Below are positions 1 through 6,114 of a DNA stretch of 6,114 nucleotides, piece after piece. This DNA comes from Acidimicrobiia bacterium (GTDB lineage Bacteria; Actinomycetota; Acidimicrobiia; UBA5794; UBA11373): assembly GCA_025456165.1 (NCBI GenBank), contig JALOLI010000166.1, forward strand, positions 1-6,114. Direction: 5' to 3'. The notes beneath the pieces were generated by a model, which was given only the letters and a program-made list of their open reading frames with translations, had not been told where the DNA came from and made no database searches. The first letter of the stretch is position 1. Each line of letters opens with the position of its first letter. Made by a program: the position numbers and the translations under genes.

Positions 1-474
1 CGGCTCGAGGCCGAAGAGGATCTCGGCGATGCCCAGACCGACGTACCAGGTGCCCAGGGTGACCATGAACGCCGGAATGCGGAACCTGGTGTTCACGAAC
101 CCGTTCACCAGGCCGAAGGCGGCGCCCATCAGGATGACGATCAGGATGGCCCAGGGGCCGAGGTCGACACTGTTGGTCTGGTCGGCCAAGAGGAGGGCGG
201 CGAGCATCGAAGTGGCCGCGAGGCTGCCCTCGAGGGAAAGGTCGATGGCCCCCAGCAGGATCACGAAGGTCATGCCGGTGCCGAGAGTCAGGGGGATAGC
301 GGCCTGGTCGGCCAGACTCCTCAGGTTTGTGACACTGACGAACTTGTGGTTGGCGATCGAGAAGAAGACGACGAGCACGAGGAGGGCCAGGATCGGCCCG
401 CCGTCGGTCACGAGCCGACGCAGGCTCGCCCGGCCCGTCTTGGACTGTGCTTGCCTCGCACTGGTGGTGGTCAT
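1..474 (-). CDS. Sugar ABC transporter permease (RbsC/CUT2-type), 5' part only
   Basis: This is the N-terminal 158 residues of an inner-membrane permease that would form the channel of a ribose/xylose-type ABC importer; the rest lies beyond the left edge (family members are about 320 residues). The protein starts MTTTSARQAQSKTGR with a basic cytoplasmic tail, followed by hydrophobic segments at about residues 26-43, 60-77, 84-97, 106-125 and 135-155. The segment GAIDLSLEGSLA (75-86) corresponds to the GGIDLSVGS-like motif of RbsC-type permeases, and NTRFRIPAFMVTLGT (128-142) to their conserved loop before the next membrane helix. The ATG at 474-472 was chosen because the frame is open to the edge and a GGGAGGAGG stretch (488-496) lies 13 nt upstream, a slightly long spacing. 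It is 69 nt downstream of the substrate-binding protein gene on the same strand, so they form one transport operon. The substrate cannot be read from the permease. Confidence 0.9.
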   Translation of the reverse strand, partial: MTTTSARQAQSKTGRASLRRLVTDGGPILALLVLVVFFSIANHKFVSVTNLRSLADQAAIPLTLGTGMTFVILLGAIDLSLEGSLAATSMLAALLLADQTNSVDLGPWAILIVILMGAAFGLVNGFVNTRFRIPAFMVTLGTWYVGLGIAEILFGLEP

Positions 475-487
475 GGCCCCGGCGCTG

Positions 488-496
488 CCTCCTCCC
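488..496 (-). promoter_or_regulatory. Ribosome binding site of the permease gene
   Basis: On the minus strand this reads GGGAGGAGG, 13 nt before the permease ATG. It lies just past the strong intercistronic hairpin, so the hairpin's state could affect access to it only indirectly. Confidence 0.5.
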
Positions 497-504
497 GGCA
501 GGGG

Positions 505-536
505 GTGGTGCGGGGCGGCTTGCCGCCCCGCACCAC
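505..536 (-). terminator. Intercistronic hairpin between binding-protein and permease genes
   Basis: The arms GTGGTGCGGGGCGG (505-518) and CCGCCCCGCACCAC (523-536) are exact reverse complements around a 4-nt loop, so the transcript can fold a 14-bp, very GC-rich stem. It begins 7 nt after the binding-protein stop codon and ends before the permease Shine-Dalgarno sequence. No T-run follows on the minus strand. In many importers, similar structures after the binding-protein gene partly end transcription or protect the upstream mRNA from 3' decay, giving more binding protein than permease. That role is inferred here; a full terminator is less likely because the permease has no visible promoter of its own. 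Confidence 0.7.
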
Positions 537-543
537 GGCCCAT

Positions 544-1638
544 TCACCGTCTAGGTTCGGCGAGTGGGCGGAACCGGTCACCCGGCTGAAGAGGTTCAAC
601 AGCGGTCACCAGGAGCCCCTGATGGAAGGCCGCACGCTGCGTGTCCGGGATGCTCGCCGGGTCGAGTTGGCCGATGGCGGCGTAGTAGCCCATTGCCAGG
701 CCGATGCCGCCCTGGTACGCGGGGTCGGGGTTCACGGTGGCGATCATGTCGCCGGCCTGGAGCGCAGCGAGCGCATCCGGGATGGCGTCGACACCGGTCA
801 CCTGGATGGTCCCGTTCTTGCCGGCTGCCCGCAGCGCCTCGATGGCGCCGATGGCCATGTTGTCGTTGGCCGCCCAGACGCCGCCGATCTCATCGCCGTA
901 CTCGGCGAGCCAGCCCTCGACGATGGCCTGGGCGTCGGTGGCCGTCCAGCCCGCCGACTGGTCGTCGAGCAGGACGATGTTGGGGTACTCCAACAGCGCC
1001 TTCTCCAGGCCCTGGAAGCGGGTGATGGCGGCCTGGTTGTCCAGCACGCCCTGGAGGGCGACGATGTTGCCCGAGCCACCCATGTGGTCGAACAGCGCCT
1101 TGGCGATCTGATAGCCGTTGTCCACGCCGTCGAAGGTCACGTGAGCGACCCAGTGGGGATAGTCCCCGCCGGGCAGTATCTCGTCGGGACGGCTCCACTG
1201 CGAGACAACATAGGCCCCGGCTTCCTCGACCGCATCGAGGATCTGGGGCAGGATGGAGGTCTCGTGCGGGTCGACGTTGACGGCCACGCACTCGCCGTGC
1301 GCTGCCAGGTAAGACGTGATCTGAGATAGCTGCCGGGCCGAGTCGCTCTGGCTTTCCACGAACTGGTACTGGCCGCCGAGGCCGACCGATTCGGCGAAGC
1401 ACTTCGCGCCGGCATCGACGATCACGTAGTAGGGGTTGGCCAGGTCACGGCCCGACTGGAGCAGCCACACGTCCTCGGGGGCGCATCCCTCGGCCGCCGC
1501 GGTGGTAGAGGCGGCAGTAGTGCCGGCCCCGGTCGTCGTCGTCTCTTCGGCGTCGTCGCCGCAGGCCGCGGCGATCAGGCCGAGGACCAGCAGCAGCACC
1601 GCTACCGCAAGTCCCGTCTTGGTAACGGAGGTCCTCAT
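544..1638 (-). CDS. Sugar ABC transporter substrate-binding lipoprotein (RbsB-like, Peripla_BP_4)
   Basis: This 364-residue secreted lipoprotein would capture a sugar or related ligand outside the membrane and deliver it to the permease encoded next. Residues 1-25 form a lipoprotein signal peptide (basic start, hydrophobic core, LIAAAC lipobox) with Cys26 as lipidation site, followed by CGDDAEE and a Thr/Ala-rich linker to about residue 50. The two-lobed type I binding-protein fold follows. Recognisable parts are NVDPHETSILPQILDAVEEAG (121-141), where the ligand-binding loop normally lies, GSGNIVALQGVLDNQAAITRFQG (188-210), VWAANDNMAIGAIEAL (254-269), VTGVDAIPDALAAL (280-293) and the hinge-region segment TVNPDPAYQGG (301-311). 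The internal ATG at 1638 was chosen over an upstream one at 1743 because it begins the signal peptide and has AAGGAGG (1649-1655) 10 nt upstream; the longer start lies inside the promoter. The ligand is unknown; C52, C80 and C117 could allow a disulfide after export. Confidence 0.93.
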   Translation of the reverse strand: MRTSVTKTGLAVAVLLLVLGLIAAACGDDAEETTTTGAGTTAASTTAAAEGCAPEDVWLLQSGRDLANPYYVIVDAGAKCFAESVGLGGQYQFVESQSDSARQLSQITSYLAAHGECVAVNVDPHETSILPQILDAVEEAGAYVVSQWSRPDEILPGGDYPHWVAHVTFDGVDNGYQIAKALFDHMGGSGNIVALQGVLDNQAAITRFQGLEKALLEYPNIVLLDDQSAGWTATDAQAIVEGWLAEYGDEIGGVWAANDNMAIGAIEALRAAGKNGTIQVTGVDAIPDALAALQAGDMIATVNPDPAYQGGIGLAMGYYAAIGQLDPASIPDTQRAAFHQGLLVTAVEPLQPGDRFRPLAEPRR

Positions 1639-1721: not shown

Positions 1722-1739
1722 GGGGTAAGCGCTTTCTAG
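1722..1739. promoter_or_regulatory. LacI/GalR-family operator, transporter side
   Basis: The sequence GGGGTAAGCGCTTTCTAG contains the 8-bp palindrome AAGCGCTT (1727-1734) with a central CG step, the hallmark of LacI/GalR/CcpA-type operators. It is an exact 18-bp reverse complement of the site at 1835-1852. It overlaps the -10 box and the expected start point of the leftward promoter, which is a repressing position. No regulator gene lies in the window, so the protein that binds is inferred from operator style alone. Confidence 0.75.
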
Positions 1740-1762
1740 TCATGGCGCCTGCCCCGTGTCAA
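1733..1762 (-). promoter_or_regulatory. Predicted leftward promoter for the ABC transporter operon
   Basis: On the minus strand a perfect -35 hexamer TTGACA (1762-1757) is followed after 18 nt by TAGAAA (1738-1733), which matches the -10 consensus at four of six places but lacks the final T. Transcription would start near 1726, giving a leader of about 88 nt. The -10 box lies within the LacI-type operator at 1722-1739, so a bound repressor would block polymerase. The matching arrangement in the opposite direction supports this reading. Confidence 0.65.
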
Positions 1763-1812
1763 GCGGTTCGAGAAATTGCTGGGTCGCATGTGCCTCTTGG
1801 TGGCCCTCGCTC

Positions 1813-1841
1813 TTGACGCCAGCACGATCTGTGGCTAGAAA
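1813..1841 (+). promoter_or_regulatory. Predicted rightward promoter for the CoA-transferase/dehydrogenase operon
   Basis: TTGACG (1813-1818) is a five-of-six match to the -35 consensus. After 17 nt comes TAGAAA (1836-1841), the same -10-like hexamer as in the leftward promoter. Transcription would begin near 1848, about 73 nt before the CoA-transferase ATG. The -10 box is inside the operator at 1835-1852. The -35 elements of the two promoters are about 50 bp apart, back to back. Confidence 0.65.
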
Positions 1842-1852
1842 GCGCTTACCCC
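1835..1852. promoter_or_regulatory. LacI/GalR-family operator, acyl-CoA gene side
   Basis: CTAGAAAGCGCTTACCCC carries the palindrome AAGCGCTT (1840-1847) and is the perfect inverted copy of the site at 1722-1739. The palindrome centres are 113 bp apart. It covers the -10 box and start point of the rightward promoter. The same regulator should therefore control both directions, possibly with both sites held by one tetramer and the DNA between them looped. Confidence 0.75.
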
Positions 1853-1876
1853 TCTCCCGACGAAGGGAGCGTTGAA

Positions 1877-1915
1877 ATGCGCCTGGTCCAGCCCCGATCG
1901 CTGCGAAACTGCTAA
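1877..1915 (+). CDS. Possible 12-codon leader ORF upstream of the CoA-transferase gene
   Basis: An AAGGGAG Shine-Dalgarno sequence (1863-1869) stands 7 nt before an ATG that opens a 12-residue reading frame, MRLVQPRSLRNC, ending in TAA at 1913-1915. The stop is 5 nt before the ATG of the CoA-transferase gene, which has no visible ribosome binding site of its own. The simplest reading is that ribosomes load here and reinitiate on the main gene. The peptide does not resemble a leader peptide I recognise, and an ORF this short may be chance; the good ribosome binding site and tight spacing are the only evidence. Confidence 0.4.
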   Translation: MRLVQPRSLRNC

Positions 1916-1920
1916 CGCCG

Positions 1921-3398
1921 ATGCGCCCGGTAGCGACTCTCAGCGCAGCAGAAGCGGTGGCCCGCATCCCCGACGGCGCCACCATCGCCCTGCCCGGCTC
2001 GGGCGGCGGGTTGCTCGAGGTCGACGCCCTCTTCGCCGCGCTCGAGGAGACCACCTGGCGCACGAGGGCCTGGTGCGCAGCATCATCGCCGGCCACTGGT
2101 CCTGGTCCCCCCCGATGCAGCGCCTGGTCAAGGAGAATCGCATCGAGGCCCACTCCTGGTCGGCGGGCATGGTGAGCACCATGTACCGCGAGATGGGCGC
2201 CGGGCGCCCCGGCATCTTCACCCGCATCGGCCTCCACACCTTCGTCGACCCCCGGCACGGCGGCGGCACCTGCAACGAGCGCACCACCGAGCCCCTGGTG
2301 GAGTTGGTGGAGGTCGCCGGCCGGGAGCACCTGTGGTACCGCCCGGTGCGGATCGACGTGGCTCTCATCCGCGCCAGCGCCGCCGACGAGTTCGGCAACC
2401 TCACCCTTTGCGACGAGCCCACGCAACTCGACACCCTGGCTGCCGCCCAGGCGGCCAAGGCCTCGGGCGGGCTGGTCCTCGCCCAGGTGAAGCGGATCGT
2501 CCCCGGAGGCTCCCTCGACCCCCGGCTGGTGCAGGTGCCCTGCATACTGGTCGACGCGGTCGTCCTCCACCCCGGGCAGTGGCAGACCTACCTTTCCGAG
2601 TACGACCCGGCGCTGGCCGGGGCCGAGCGCCTCGACCCCGGGCCCATCGCGCCGCCCGAGGAGACCGCCAAGCGCATCCTCTCCGGGCGGGCCGCCGACG
2701 AGGTGGTTGCGGGCAACCTGACCGTCTTCGGCTTCGGCGTCTCCTCCGACGTGGTGGGGGTCCTGTACGAGCAGGGCCGCCTCGACGACATCACCCTCGC
2801 CATCGAGCAGGGCCTGGTCGGCGGCCGCCCCGAGACCGGATGGCTGTTCGGAGCAAGCCGCAACCCCGTGGCCATGATCTCCTCGAACGCGATGTTCGAC
2901 ACCATCGCCGGGCGCGGGGTGGACACGTGCATCCTGGGCATGGCCCAGGTCGATCGGACCGGGTCGGTGAACGTCAGCCACATCGGGGGCCTCATCGTGG
3001 GCCCGGGCGGCTTCATCGACATCTCCCAGTCGTCCCGCCACGCCGTGTTCTGCGGCACATTCACCGCGCGCGGCCTCCAGGTAGAAGCCGCCGGCGGCCG
3101 CCTGCACATAGTCCAGGAAGGGCAGATCCCCAAGTTCGTCGCCGGCGTGGATGCGATCACCTACAGCGGACCCTTTGCCCTCGAGGAGGGACGCCGGGCC
3201 ACCTACGTCACCGAGCGGGCCGTCTTCGAACTGACCCCGGAGGGCCTGGAGCTCACCGAGGTCGCCCCCGGCATCTCCATCGACGGAGACATCCTGCCTC
3301 ACATGGGCTTCACCCCCATCATCCGCTCGCCGCGTCCCATGCCGGCGGCGCTGTTCACCGGCGAGCTCGCCCGCCAGATCCCAGGAGGAACCCGATGA
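1921..3398 (+). pseudogene. Propionate/short-chain acyl CoA-transferase (Pct/YdiF type), broken by internal deletion and frameshift
   Basis: Pct/YdiF enzymes move CoA between short carboxylic acids through a glutamyl-CoA intermediate; the two halves of the enzyme are fused in one chain of about 520 residues. The N-terminus, MRPVATLSAAEAVARIPDGA onward, reads in frame from 1921 to about 2049. The rest, beginning DHLAHEGLVRSIIAGHW, reads in another frame from 2049 to the TGA at 3396-3398. Later motifs include GIFTRIGLHTFVDPRHGGG, VALIRASAADEFGNLT, the catalytic region IEQGLVGG with its Glu codon at 2805-2807, FGASRNP, and GGFIDISQSSRHAVFCGTF. Joined, the product has 492 residues and the catalytic Glu is number 296, whereas Pct has it near 324; about 26 residues are therefore missing at the junction. 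The remainder shows no decay, so a recent deletion or an assembly/sequencing error are both possible. The ATG at 1921 is the only usable start in its frame. The stop overlaps the dehydrogenase start. Confidence 0.87.
3383..3388 (+). promoter_or_regulatory. Ribosome binding site of the acyl-CoA dehydrogenase gene
   Basis: AGGAGG stands 6 nt before the ATG at 3395, inside the last codons of the CoA-transferase. It fixes the dehydrogenase start although its frame stays open far upstream. Confidence 0.8.
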
Positions 3399-4549
3399 GC
3401 AACCCGTCCGACTCCGGCCAGGCCGACCGCGATCTCCTGGTGGGGATGGTGCGGCAGTTCGCCGCCGATCGCATCCGGCCCATCGCCGAGGACCTCGACG
3501 CCACCGAGCGCTTCCCCGCCGAGATCTACCGAGAGCTGGGCGAGCTGGGGTTGCTGGGCATCACGGTCCCGGAGGCCATGGGCGGCTCCGGCGGCAGCGC
3601 CCTCGACTACGCCAAGGTCATGGAGGAGCTGGCCTACGGCTACGCCAGCGTGGCCGACCAGTGCGGCCTGGTGGAGCTGATCTCCTCGCTGCTCACCGAG
3701 TTCGGCACCGACGCCCAGCGCGCCCACTACCTGCCCGGGCTCCTCGCCGGCACCAAGTACTGCGCCTACGCCCTCACCGAGGCCGAGGCCGGCTCCGACC
3801 TGGGGAACCTGAAGACCAACGCCCGGCGGGAGGGCGACGGCTGGGTGCTCAACGGGGAGAAGGTCTACATCCACAACGCCCCCATCGCCGACGTCGCCAT
3901 GGTGCTGGCCGTCACCGACAAGGCGAAGGGCCGCCGCGGGGGCATGTCGATGTTCCTGGTGGACTGCGACCTCCCCGGCGTTACCCGGGCCTATCACGAG
4001 CACAAGATGGGCCAGCGCGCCTCCCAGGTGGGGGGCTTTGTGTTCGAGGATGTCCGGCTCGCCCCCGATGCCATCCTGGGCGCCGAAGGGGCCGGCTTCG
4101 GGGCGGTGCTCCGAGTGCTGGAGAAGGGGCGGGTGGGCATCGCCGCCCTGGCCCTGGGCATCCAGCGAGCCGCCCTCGACGCCTCGATCGAGCACGCCAC
4201 CACCCGCATCCAGTTCGGCAAGCCCATCGCCGAGTTCCAGGGGGTCTCCTTCAAGGTCGCCGACATGGCGACCGACTACGAGGCCGCCCGCTTGCTCGTC
4301 GAGAGCGCCGCCCGCAAGATCGACGCCAAGGACCCCGGGGCGGGCCCGGCCTCGTCGATGGCCAAGGTCTTTGCCTCCGAGGCGGCGGTGCGCAACACCT
4401 CGCTTGCCGTGCAGATCCACGGCGGCTCCGGGTACATCAAGGGCGTCGAGGTGGAGCGCCTCTACCGGGACGCCCGGGTCACCATGATCTACGAAGGCAC
4501 CAGCGAGGTGCAGCGCTTGATCATCTCCCGCGCCTACCTGCGTCCCTGA
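3395..4549 (+). CDS. Acyl-CoA dehydrogenase (short-chain type, FAD-dependent)
   Basis: This 384-residue cytoplasmic flavoenzyme would introduce a 2,3 double bond into an acyl-CoA and pass electrons to electron-transfer flavoprotein; the length is normal for the family. The helical N-terminal domain covers about residues 10-122. The middle beta domain opens with ALTEAEAGSDLG (126-137), the first family signature. The C-terminal domain holds RIQFGKPI (271-278) and the second signature region from Gln340 (QIHGGSGY...ERLYRDAR). Glu367 in IYEGTSEVQ aligns with the catalytic base of short-chain acyl-CoA dehydrogenases. Gly350 occupies a place where the second signature normally has Asp, Glu or Asn. 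The start is set by the AGGAGG at 3383-3388 and the ATGA overlap with the CoA-transferase stop, indicating translational coupling. E. coli has a similar pair, ydiF-ydiO. The CoA-ester substrate cannot be told; coupling suggests the acid activated by the upstream enzyme. Confidence 0.95.
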   Translation: MSNPSDSGQADRDLLVGMVRQFAADRIRPIAEDLDATERFPAEIYRELGELGLLGITVPEAMGGSGGSALDYAKVMEELAYGYASVADQCGLVELISSLLTEFGTDAQRAHYLPGLLAGTKYCAYALTEAEAGSDLGNLKTNARREGDGWVLNGEKVYIHNAPIADVAMVLAVTDKAKGRRGGMSMFLVDCDLPGVTRAYHEHKMGQRASQVGGFVFEDVRLAPDAILGAEGAGFGAVLRVLEKGRVGIAALALGIQRAALDASIEHATTRIQFGKPIAEFQGVSFKVADMATDYEAARLLVESAARKIDAKDPGAGPASSMAKVFASEAAVRNTSLAVQIHGGSGYIKGVEVERLYRDARVTMIYEGTSEVQRLIISRAYLRP

Positions 4550-5619: not shown

Positions 5620-6114
5620 CTATCCCCCGGCACCGGGGCCCCCGGCCGTGGCCGGCCCCGCTTCGGGGAAGATGAGCGACGCCCGGTGCAGGCGCGGCAG
5701 CAGCGGCCCGATGGTTCCTTCCCGCCGGCACCCGAGCCAGACCCCGGCGCAGTAGGCGGCATCGTCGGCCAGGTGGAGCACCCCGTAGGTCGCCGGATCG
5801 AGGGGCGGCCGGCGCTCCAGCCAGTCCACCAGGGGGGGCACTGCCAGAAAGAGGGCCAGGGCCCGGCGGGGCCGGCGCCCTGCCGCCAGGGCGCCCAGCG
5901 CCAGCGGCAGCCAGGTCCGGGAGAGAGCTGAGGCCAGGACCCGGGCCGCCCCAAGATGCCCGGCGCCGGTCACCGCCCAGGCCACCGCCCGGGAGTCGCC
6001 CACCCGGCCCCGCAGCCGCCGCTCCAGGCGGCCTAGCGTGAACAGGCCCAGGAGCCCGGCCAGCCTGAGGCGGCCGGCCAGGGCGGCTGCCCACAGAGCC
6101 GCGCTCCAGGGGGA
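5620..6114 (-). CDS. mftF: Mycofactocin glycosyltransferase MftF-like protein, C-terminal part
   Basis: This is the last 164 residues of a protein entering from the right edge; the frame is open from the first base and ends at TAG (5622-5620). The segment resembles the C-terminal membrane-associated region of MftF, the family 2 glycosyltransferase that decorates the redox cofactor mycofactocin with glucose units. Fragment residues 44-71 (from AWAVTGAGHLGAARVL to TWLPL), 84-107 (ALALFLAVPPLVDWL then RRPPLDP) and 110-140 (YGVLHLADDAAYCAGVWLGC then the REGTIGPLLPRL end) follow the pattern I remember for that family: a Trp-Pro hydrophobic helix, a DWL/RPxLDP turn, and an ADDxAYxxGxWxG segment. 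Hydrophobic helices at about 4-28, 65-78 and 85-98 suggest membrane association. The catalytic domain is outside the window, so the assignment rests on the tail alone. A short internal GTG start at 6003 is not the real one. Confidence 0.72.
   Translation of the reverse strand, partial: SPWSAALWAAALAGRLRLAGLLGLFTLGRLERRLRGRVGDSRAVAWAVTGAGHLGAARVLASALSRTWLPLALGALAAGRRPRRALALFLAVPPLVDWLERRPPLDPATYGVLHLADDAAYCAGVWLGCRREGTIGPLLPRLHRASLIFPEAGPATAGGPGAGG

What the first reader, a model, noticed from the sequence alone, without database searches (positions are those of the whole stretch)
1722..1852. Twin identical operators embedded in the -10 boxes of back-to-back promoters
An exact 18-bp inverted repeat (1722-1739 and 1835-1852) flanks a 95-bp spacer in the only long intergenic region. 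Each arm contains AAGCGCTT, a LacI/GalR-style core, and each holds TAGAAA placed 17 or 18 nt from a TTGACG/TTGACA facing outward. The symmetry of both promoter and operator suggests a single repressor silencing both directions, possibly through a loop over 113 bp between centres. It ties a sugar importer and acyl-CoA genes into one regulon.
Basis: partly seen in the sequence, partly recalled or inferred. Interest (0 to 1): 0.7.

Follow-up and report, generated by a model that had tools for sequence, protein, structure and literature searches.

The report
Twin repressor sites in back-to-back promoters
Two identical repressor-binding sites sit inside two promoters that face away from each other, and related bacteria have the same arrangement next to a LacI-type repressor gene, so a sugar importer and genes for handling acids bound to coenzyme A are probably switched together by one local repressor, an orderly but largely familiar kind of gene switch.

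Summary
In detail: an exact 18-nt inverted repeat (1722-1739, 1835-1852), absent from 100 window shuffles, centres 113 bp apart. Each arm overlaps a TAGAAA lying 18 (minus) or 17 (plus) nt from TTGACA/TTGACG. In those three genomes the composite occurs 2, 3 and 1 times, all 6 inside the cluster, with 0 reversed controls. The pattern was shaped on these sites, so its absence elsewhere is the informative part. The binding-protein promoter is TTGACA-N18-TAGAAA and the CoA-transferase-side one TTGACG-N17-TAGAAA in window, G733 and G901 alike. All three relatives' clusters hold an orthologous LacI-family gene. Twin sites in five divergent regions lie 110-113 bp apart without consistent similarity between them. 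Best reading: a local LacI-family repressor occludes both -10s; gal-like looping is possible, unproven. The window's own repressor gene was not found, and its operator core (AAGCGCTT) differs from the relatives'. New member of a known kind.

The parts
1722..1739 (-). left operator arm, LacI-type even palindrome with CG centre at 1730/1731, overlapping the -10 and inferred start of the minus-strand promoter
   Evidence: exact inverted copy of 1835-1852
1835..1852 (+). right operator arm, CG centre at 1843/1844, overlapping the -10 and inferred start of the plus-strand promoter
1757..1762 (-). -35 element TTGACA of the binding-protein promoter (N18 to TAGAAA)
   Evidence: same TTGACA-N18-TAGAAA before the orthologous gene in L100 and L101
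1733..1738 (-). -10 element TAGAAA of the binding-protein promoter; start near 1726 inferred
   Evidence: position of start is inference
1813..1818 (+). -35 element TTGACG of the CoA-transferase promoter (N17 to TAGAAA)
   Evidence: same TTGACG-N17-TAGAAA before the SDR-CoA-transferase operon in L100 and L101
1836..1841 (+). -10 element TAGAAA of the CoA-transferase promoter; start near 1848 inferred
   Evidence: position of start is inference
544..1638 (-). controlled gene (inferred): RbsB-type sugar-binding lipoprotein of an ABC importer
   Evidence: Peripla_BP_4 2.5e-43; relatives; lipoprotein signal read by eye
1..543 (-). controlled gene (inferred; cut by window edge): RbsC-type permease
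   Evidence: BPD_transp_2 2.2e-10
1921..3398 (+). controlled gene (inferred): FadX-like CoA-transferase; the reading frame changes near 2045-2060 and about 30 codons are missing there relative to orthologs (counted by eye)
   Evidence: CoA_trans 8.4e-24; FadX model 6.5e-90, below its cut-off; frames and orthologs listed side by side
3395..4549 (+). controlled gene (inferred): acyl-CoA dehydrogenase
   Evidence: Acyl-CoA_dh domains; 69% identical ortholog in the L001 cluster

Best explanation
The region is a divergent regulatory hub of one catabolic gene cluster. A dimeric LacI-family repressor, probably encoded elsewhere in the same cluster, binds two identical operators, each laid over the -10 element and start of one of two outward promoters. 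Bound repressor blocks RNA polymerase at both, silencing the importer operon (binding protein, permease) and the CoA-transferase/acyl-CoA dehydrogenase operon together; a substrate or intermediate of the pathway would release it. Shown: the sequence, the composite, its conservation, its restriction to the cluster in three genomes, and an orthologous LacI gene in those relatives. Inferred: binding, occlusion, inducer, dimer state, and any cooperation between sites. Looping is a possible refinement (about 0.3).
For: Exact twin arms. The composite TTGAC-N18/19-TANAAANCGNT occurs in whole genomes G733, G901 and G001 only within the orthologous cluster: 6 of 6 hits, 0 control hits (the G001 hit is L001 6116). 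The pattern was made after seeing these sites, so the informative part is that nothing else in the three genomes matches. Among 103 sequences held at that point (102 loci, some overlapping, and the window; 1.64 Mb) all 5 matches to the strict form lie in the window or these clusters. Gene-specific promoter shape is kept: TTGACA-N18-TAGAAA before the binding protein and TTGACG-N17-TAGAAA before the SDR/CoA-transferase operon in window, L100 and L101. Over the 12 sites listed, 24 of 24 half-sites have A at NT-3 and 21 of 24 G at NT-6 (sites were picked with a CG centre and A/T-rich flanks, so the first figure is partly built in). Even palindromes with central CG are the LacI-family norm (PMC4052901, section 9), and G at NT-6 goes with R at AA-20, as in the TVSR helix of the cluster regulators (PMC2978694, section 6). 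A LacI gene (PF00356 in 3 of 3 tested) lies in the clusters L001, L100 and L101; the G901 protein finds the other two as best hits by a wide margin (581 vs 138 bits in G733; 292 vs 128 in G001).
Against: No regulator gene was found in the window, and no genome of the source is held. The window's core (AAGCGCTT) is not that of G733/G901 (AATCG on the promoter side in 7 of 8 sites), so its regulator should differ at DNA-contacting residues. The bare operator is not unique: TAGAAANCGNTT has 16 matches in the 103 sequences, 11 of them outside the window and these clusters (10 in Streptomyces loci, 1 in L022), and exact GGTAAGCGCTTNC sites occur away from this cluster in G002, G005 and G006. The -10 TAGAAA lacks the usual final T. 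The LacI-side operator ends in L100 and L101 have no good -35 (GTGAAC, TTCAAC, read by eye). In L001 only the SDR promoter carries the full composite; its binding-protein promoter has at best a half-site (CGCTTACC at 9787). In L018 and L020 the cluster has TetR-type regulators instead.
Confidence: 0.84

Rival explanations
1. Gal-like looping: repressor dimers on the two operators touch each other, closing a loop of about 110-113 bp that holds both -35 elements, so full repression needs both sites.
For: Centre spacing 113 (window), 113, 112, 110, 111 bp in five divergent regions, while the inner sequences show no consistent similarity (z from -2.1 to 2.7 over 10 pairs). The E. coli gal loop is 113 bp (PMC4693257). 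The promoter partners differ between window and relatives, yet the spacing is the same.
Against: Orthologous regions are related by descent, so the five spacings are not independent, and one of the ten inner pairs (L101 A and B) reaches z 2.7. The regulator appears to lack the C-terminal extension of tetrameric LacI (match ends at LacI residue 329 of 360). L001 has 55 bp and one direction only. 110-113 is not among the peaks 13, 22, 32 bp named for LacI-family sites (the histogram itself was not seen). 110-113 bp is 10.5-10.8 turns at 10.5 bp per turn, not a whole number.
Confidence: 0.3
2. The sites belong to a global catabolite regulator of CcpA type (cre-like sites), not to a local repressor.
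For: The closest solved structures to the relatives' LacI protein are CcpA (best 1rzr, 5e-44; that its listed name, glucose-resistance amylase regulator, means CcpA is recalled). Recalled: cre sites have a GNAANCGNTTNC-like form, which the window's core fits. Operators of the window's very letters occur elsewhere in other genomes.
Against: In G733, G901 and G001 the composite is found nowhere but in this cluster, and the LacI gene sits in the cluster.
Confidence: 0.1
3. The arms are terminal inverted repeats of a small mobile element (131 bp).
For: Exact inverted arms with a short unique middle.
Against: No target-site duplication visible at the flanks; arms coincide with -10s in phase; relatives keep the arrangement with different arm letters.
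Confidence: 0.02

Closest known systems
Local LacI-family regulons of carbohydrate clusters (Ravcheev et al. 2014, PMC4052901)
   Same: Even palindrome with CG centre, sites upstream of a sugar importer, regulator in or beside the cluster, divergons with more than one site
   Different: Controls a CoA-transferase/acyl-CoA dehydrogenase operon too; twin sites at 110-113 bp rather than the named peaks at 13, 22, 32 bp (passages and section 9 read)
E. coli gal operators and GalR loop (PMC4693257)
   Same: Two operators of a LacI/GalR-family repressor, 113 bp apart, two promoters controlled together
   Different: gal has two promoters of one operon; here they are divergent and the operators lie on the -10s; no HU site was looked for; loop not shown (passages and section 12 read)
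CcpA and cre sites (Bacillus)
   Same: Closest solved relatives of the cluster regulator; similar core (recalled)
   Different: Global regulator (recalled); here the promoter-operator composite is confined to one cluster in three genomes

Membership tests
LacI-family operator | Even palindrome with central CG | tested here: met
   12 of 12 listed sites have a CG centre, but they were chosen so; independent part: G at NT-6 in 21 of 24 half-sites
LacI-family operator | LacI-family gene in the orthologous clusters | tested here: met
   L001, L100, L101; not in L018 and L020, which have TetR-type genes
LacI-family operator | LacI-family gene in the window's own cluster | not testable with these tools
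   no PF00356 in the 7 translations scanned; no genome held
LacI-family operator | Conservation upstream of orthologous genes | tested here: met
   (L100, L101 both sides; L001 on the SDR side only)
LacI-family operator | Binding by the regulator | not testable with these tools
   needs gel shift or footprint
gal-type looping pair | Two operators about 113 bp apart | tested here: met
   113, 113, 112, 110, 111 bp; 55 in L001
gal-type looping pair | Both sites needed together for full repression | not testable with these tools
   needs reporter assays
LacI-type tetramer | C-terminal tetramer helix | tested here: not met
   L101 regulator matches LacI (1lbg) to residue 329 of 360, with 13 residues left after the match; the window's own regulator is unknown
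CcpA/cre global regulon | Sites at many unrelated operons | tested here: inconclusive
   6 of 6 composite hits in the cluster, but the composite demands the promoter too, so bare operators elsewhere in these genomes are not excluded
Mobile element termini | Target-site duplication | tested here: not met
   flanks unlike by eye

The most novel reading that the evidence does not exclude
A spacing-locked divergon: selection keeps two -10-embedded operators 110-113 bp apart through a change of promoter partners, loss of spacer similarity and a change of operator core, because a non-tetrameric LacI-family repressor closes a gal-length loop over divergent promoters. Regulator and operator core have drifted together: NT-2 is a purine in window and Planosporangium and mostly T in G733/G901, while the known regulators differ at AA-55 (A to R) and AA-15 (I to E).
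Probability: 0.25. Interest if true: 0.55.

Novelty: new member of a known kind. Interest (0 to 1): 0.4.

Why it matters
It gives a clean, testable regulon for a pathway I could not identify that joins a sugar-type importer to CoA chemistry in two phyla, and a natural series of related operators and regulators in which co-change of recognition residues and operator bases, and a kept operator spacing, can be tested directly.

Tried and rejected
Mobile-element ends: rejected (no duplication of flanks; arrangement conserved with other letters). RNA element: no Rfam match at gathering thresholds. Standard sigma-70 scan: found neither promoter because it demands a T at the last -10 position; I rely on conservation instead. 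Search for AAGCGCTT or close palindromes up to 700 bp upstream of the match in the first 30 loci: one hit, L026 (for L029 the scan was misplaced, so 29 of 30 count); since the core differs in relatives that scan alone would have misled. A 13-mer operator scan in six genomes was too loose: matches exceeded the reversed control clearly in G002 (27 vs 10) and G005 (40 vs 20), barely in G001 (15 vs 12), and not in G003, G004, G006 (4 vs 7, 13 vs 34, 27 vs 33). Closer relatives were sought by binding protein: 1 of 396 genomes of the phylum (the known G001), 0 of 3, 1 of 395 of a class, 3 of 298 of an order (G733, G901 and G881), 1 of 22 of a family (the known G901). G881's relative is only 38% identical; its stretch L102 shows importer genes but no CoA-transferase, dehydrogenase or LacI match in the ORFs labelled and no composite. 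A strict composite scan of 385 genomes gave 1 hit (G733 cluster) against 3 control hits in 3 genomes. Loci L002-L017 and L021 (same binding-protein family, no CoA-transferase match within the stretch) have no composite. Pathway identity: no held paper has DUF993; left open. Searches for divergent LacI regions with two operators (two unrelated papers listed) and for Acidimicrobiia with LacI and operator (none) gave nothing.

Full report
Observation. The window holds an exact 18-nt inverted repeat at 1722-1739 and 1835-1852, extended to 21 nt at 95%. No exact 18-nt inverted repeat was produced in 100 shuffles of the window or in 1000 of the intergenic region. Each arm is a near-palindrome around a CG (GTAAGCGCTTTC), with centres 113 bp apart. 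Read outward, each is laid over a TAGAAA that stands 18 nt (minus) or 17 nt (plus) from TTGACA/TTGACG. In 5000 shuffles of the intergenic region none held even one relaxed composite, against two observed.

Surroundings. On the minus strand lie an RbsC-type permease and an RbsB-type binding lipoprotein. On the plus strand lie a FadX-like CoA-transferase and an acyl-CoA dehydrogenase, then on the minus strand an aldo/keto reductase and the end of a gene resembling the mycofactocin glycosyltransferase MftF (the MftF and FadX scores are below those models' cut-offs). No LacI DNA-binding domain was found in the seven translations scanned. No genome is held for the window.

Relatives. I scored the first 30 of 80 for synteny: 4 of 30 (L001 Planosporangium, L018 Rhodobacteraceae MAG, L019 Paraburkholderia, L020 Caballeronia) carry the binding protein together with CoA-transferase and acyl-CoA dehydrogenase. 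Their clusters (L100, L101) hold importer, SDR, CoA-transferase, acyl-CoA dehydrogenase, a relative of the L001 DUF993 protein, a GMC oxidoreductase, and a LacI-family gene divergent from the binding protein. So importer and CoA genes travel together in two phyla, which supports a common pathway (inference). The substrate is unknown to me.

Conserved architecture. L100 and L101 each have two divergent regions: binding protein / LacI (A) and permease / SDR-CoA-transferase (B). All four have twin CG-centred sites, facing outward as in the window. The binding-protein promoter is TTGACA-N18-TAGAAA in window, L100 and L101, and the CoA-transferase-side promoter is TTGACG-N17-TAGAAA in all three. 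The permease side has TTGACG-N17-TATATA (L100) and TTGACC-N17-TATAAA (L101). The two LacI-side ends have no good -35 (read by eye). L001 has TTGACA-N17-TAGAAA with a site over it before the SDR, and a second site 55 bp upstream, but no full composite before its binding protein. Spacings in the five divergent regions are 113, 113, 112, 110 and 111 bp, although the inner sequences are not consistently alike (10 pairs, z -2.1 to 2.7). A rough simulation with uniform spacings of 60-200 gives a range of 3 bp or less for three independent regions in 0.2% of draws. This is only a guide, since orthologous regions are not independent.

Specificity. The composite occurs 2, 3 and 1 times in the whole genomes G733, G901 and G001; all 6 lie in the cluster and the reversed control gives 0. 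The pattern was shaped on these sites, so what counts is that nothing else matches. In the 103 sequences held (102 loci and the window, 1.64 Mb) the loose form gave 12 hits: 1 elsewhere (L060), and 11 in the window or clusters, 3 of which are overlapping copies (L096-L098) of L100/L101 sites. The -35/-10 pair without the operator gave 11 hits, 1 elsewhere (L076). The operator with TAGAAA but without the -35 gave 16, of which 11 lie elsewhere (10 Streptomyces loci and L022), so specificity comes from the composite, not from the bare operator. Across 385 genomes of the class the strict form hit only G733, with 3 control hits in other genomes. Exact GGTAAGCGCTTNC sites also occur in G002, G005 and G006 outside this cluster, as expected if other LacI-family regulators use such cores.

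Regulator. The cluster LacI of G901 finds its G733 and G001 counterparts as best hits by a wide margin. The helix is VSEATVSRA in L100/L101 and VSIATVSRV in L001; the residue after the hinge leucine is R in the former and A in the latter (positions AA-15 and AA-55 assigned by me from the numbering in PMC2978694, of which I saw the abstract, passages, and sections 6 and 9). That paper links NT-2 to AA-55, AA-15 and AA-5, and NT-6 G to R at AA-20. NT-2 is G in the window (4 of 4 half-sites), A or G in L001 (4 of 4), and T in 12 of 16 (C in 3, A in 1) in L100/L101. This fits co-change but rests on three regulators, two of them 81% identical. The G901 regulator ends near where LacI's core ends, so it probably lacks the tetramer helix.

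Mechanism. Most likely a dimeric repressor occludes both -10s when no inducer is present. Because the operators cover the -10s and inferred starts, each could repress its promoter alone; the kept spacing hints at cooperation, and the gal loop is 113 bp (PMC4693257: passages and section 12 read). The missing last T of the -10 goes with the operator letters, so the promoters may be weak or strongly -35-dependent (inference).

Verdict. It is a new member of a known kind, with an unusually clean comparative record.

Noticed in passing
window 1921-2175 and 1872-3398: The CoA-transferase starts in one frame (ATG 1921) and continues in another from about 2045-2060, with about 30 codons missing relative to L001/L101/L019 orthologs (by eye); either an assembly fault or a damaged gene. 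Intact orthologs exist.
   Followed up: partly
window 1877-1915: A 12-codon open frame (MRLVQPRSLRNC, stop) lies just before the CoA-transferase ATG at 1921, possibly a leader for coupled translation.
   Followed up: no
window 5620-6114: C-terminal part of an MftF-like mycofactocin glycosyltransferase beside the catabolic cluster (2.7e-27, below the model's cut-off).
   Followed up: partly
L001, L018, L019, L020, L100, L101: An unidentified cluster joining an RbsB-type importer, CoA-transferase and acyl-CoA dehydrogenase (with GMC oxidoreductase, DUF993, SDR, ETF or glycerate kinase in some) recurs in Actinomycetota and Proteobacteria; TetR-type regulators stand in L018 and L020.
   Followed up: partly
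L034, L040, L041, L043, L047, L053, L056, L057, L059, L065: Ten Streptomyces loci share a TAGAAAGCGCTT site roughly 5-9 kb from a distantly related binding-protein gene, without the -35 composite.
   Followed up: no
L100 7581-9773: One long frame in G733 encodes two binding-protein domains in tandem (58% and 61% identical to the window's).
   Followed up: no
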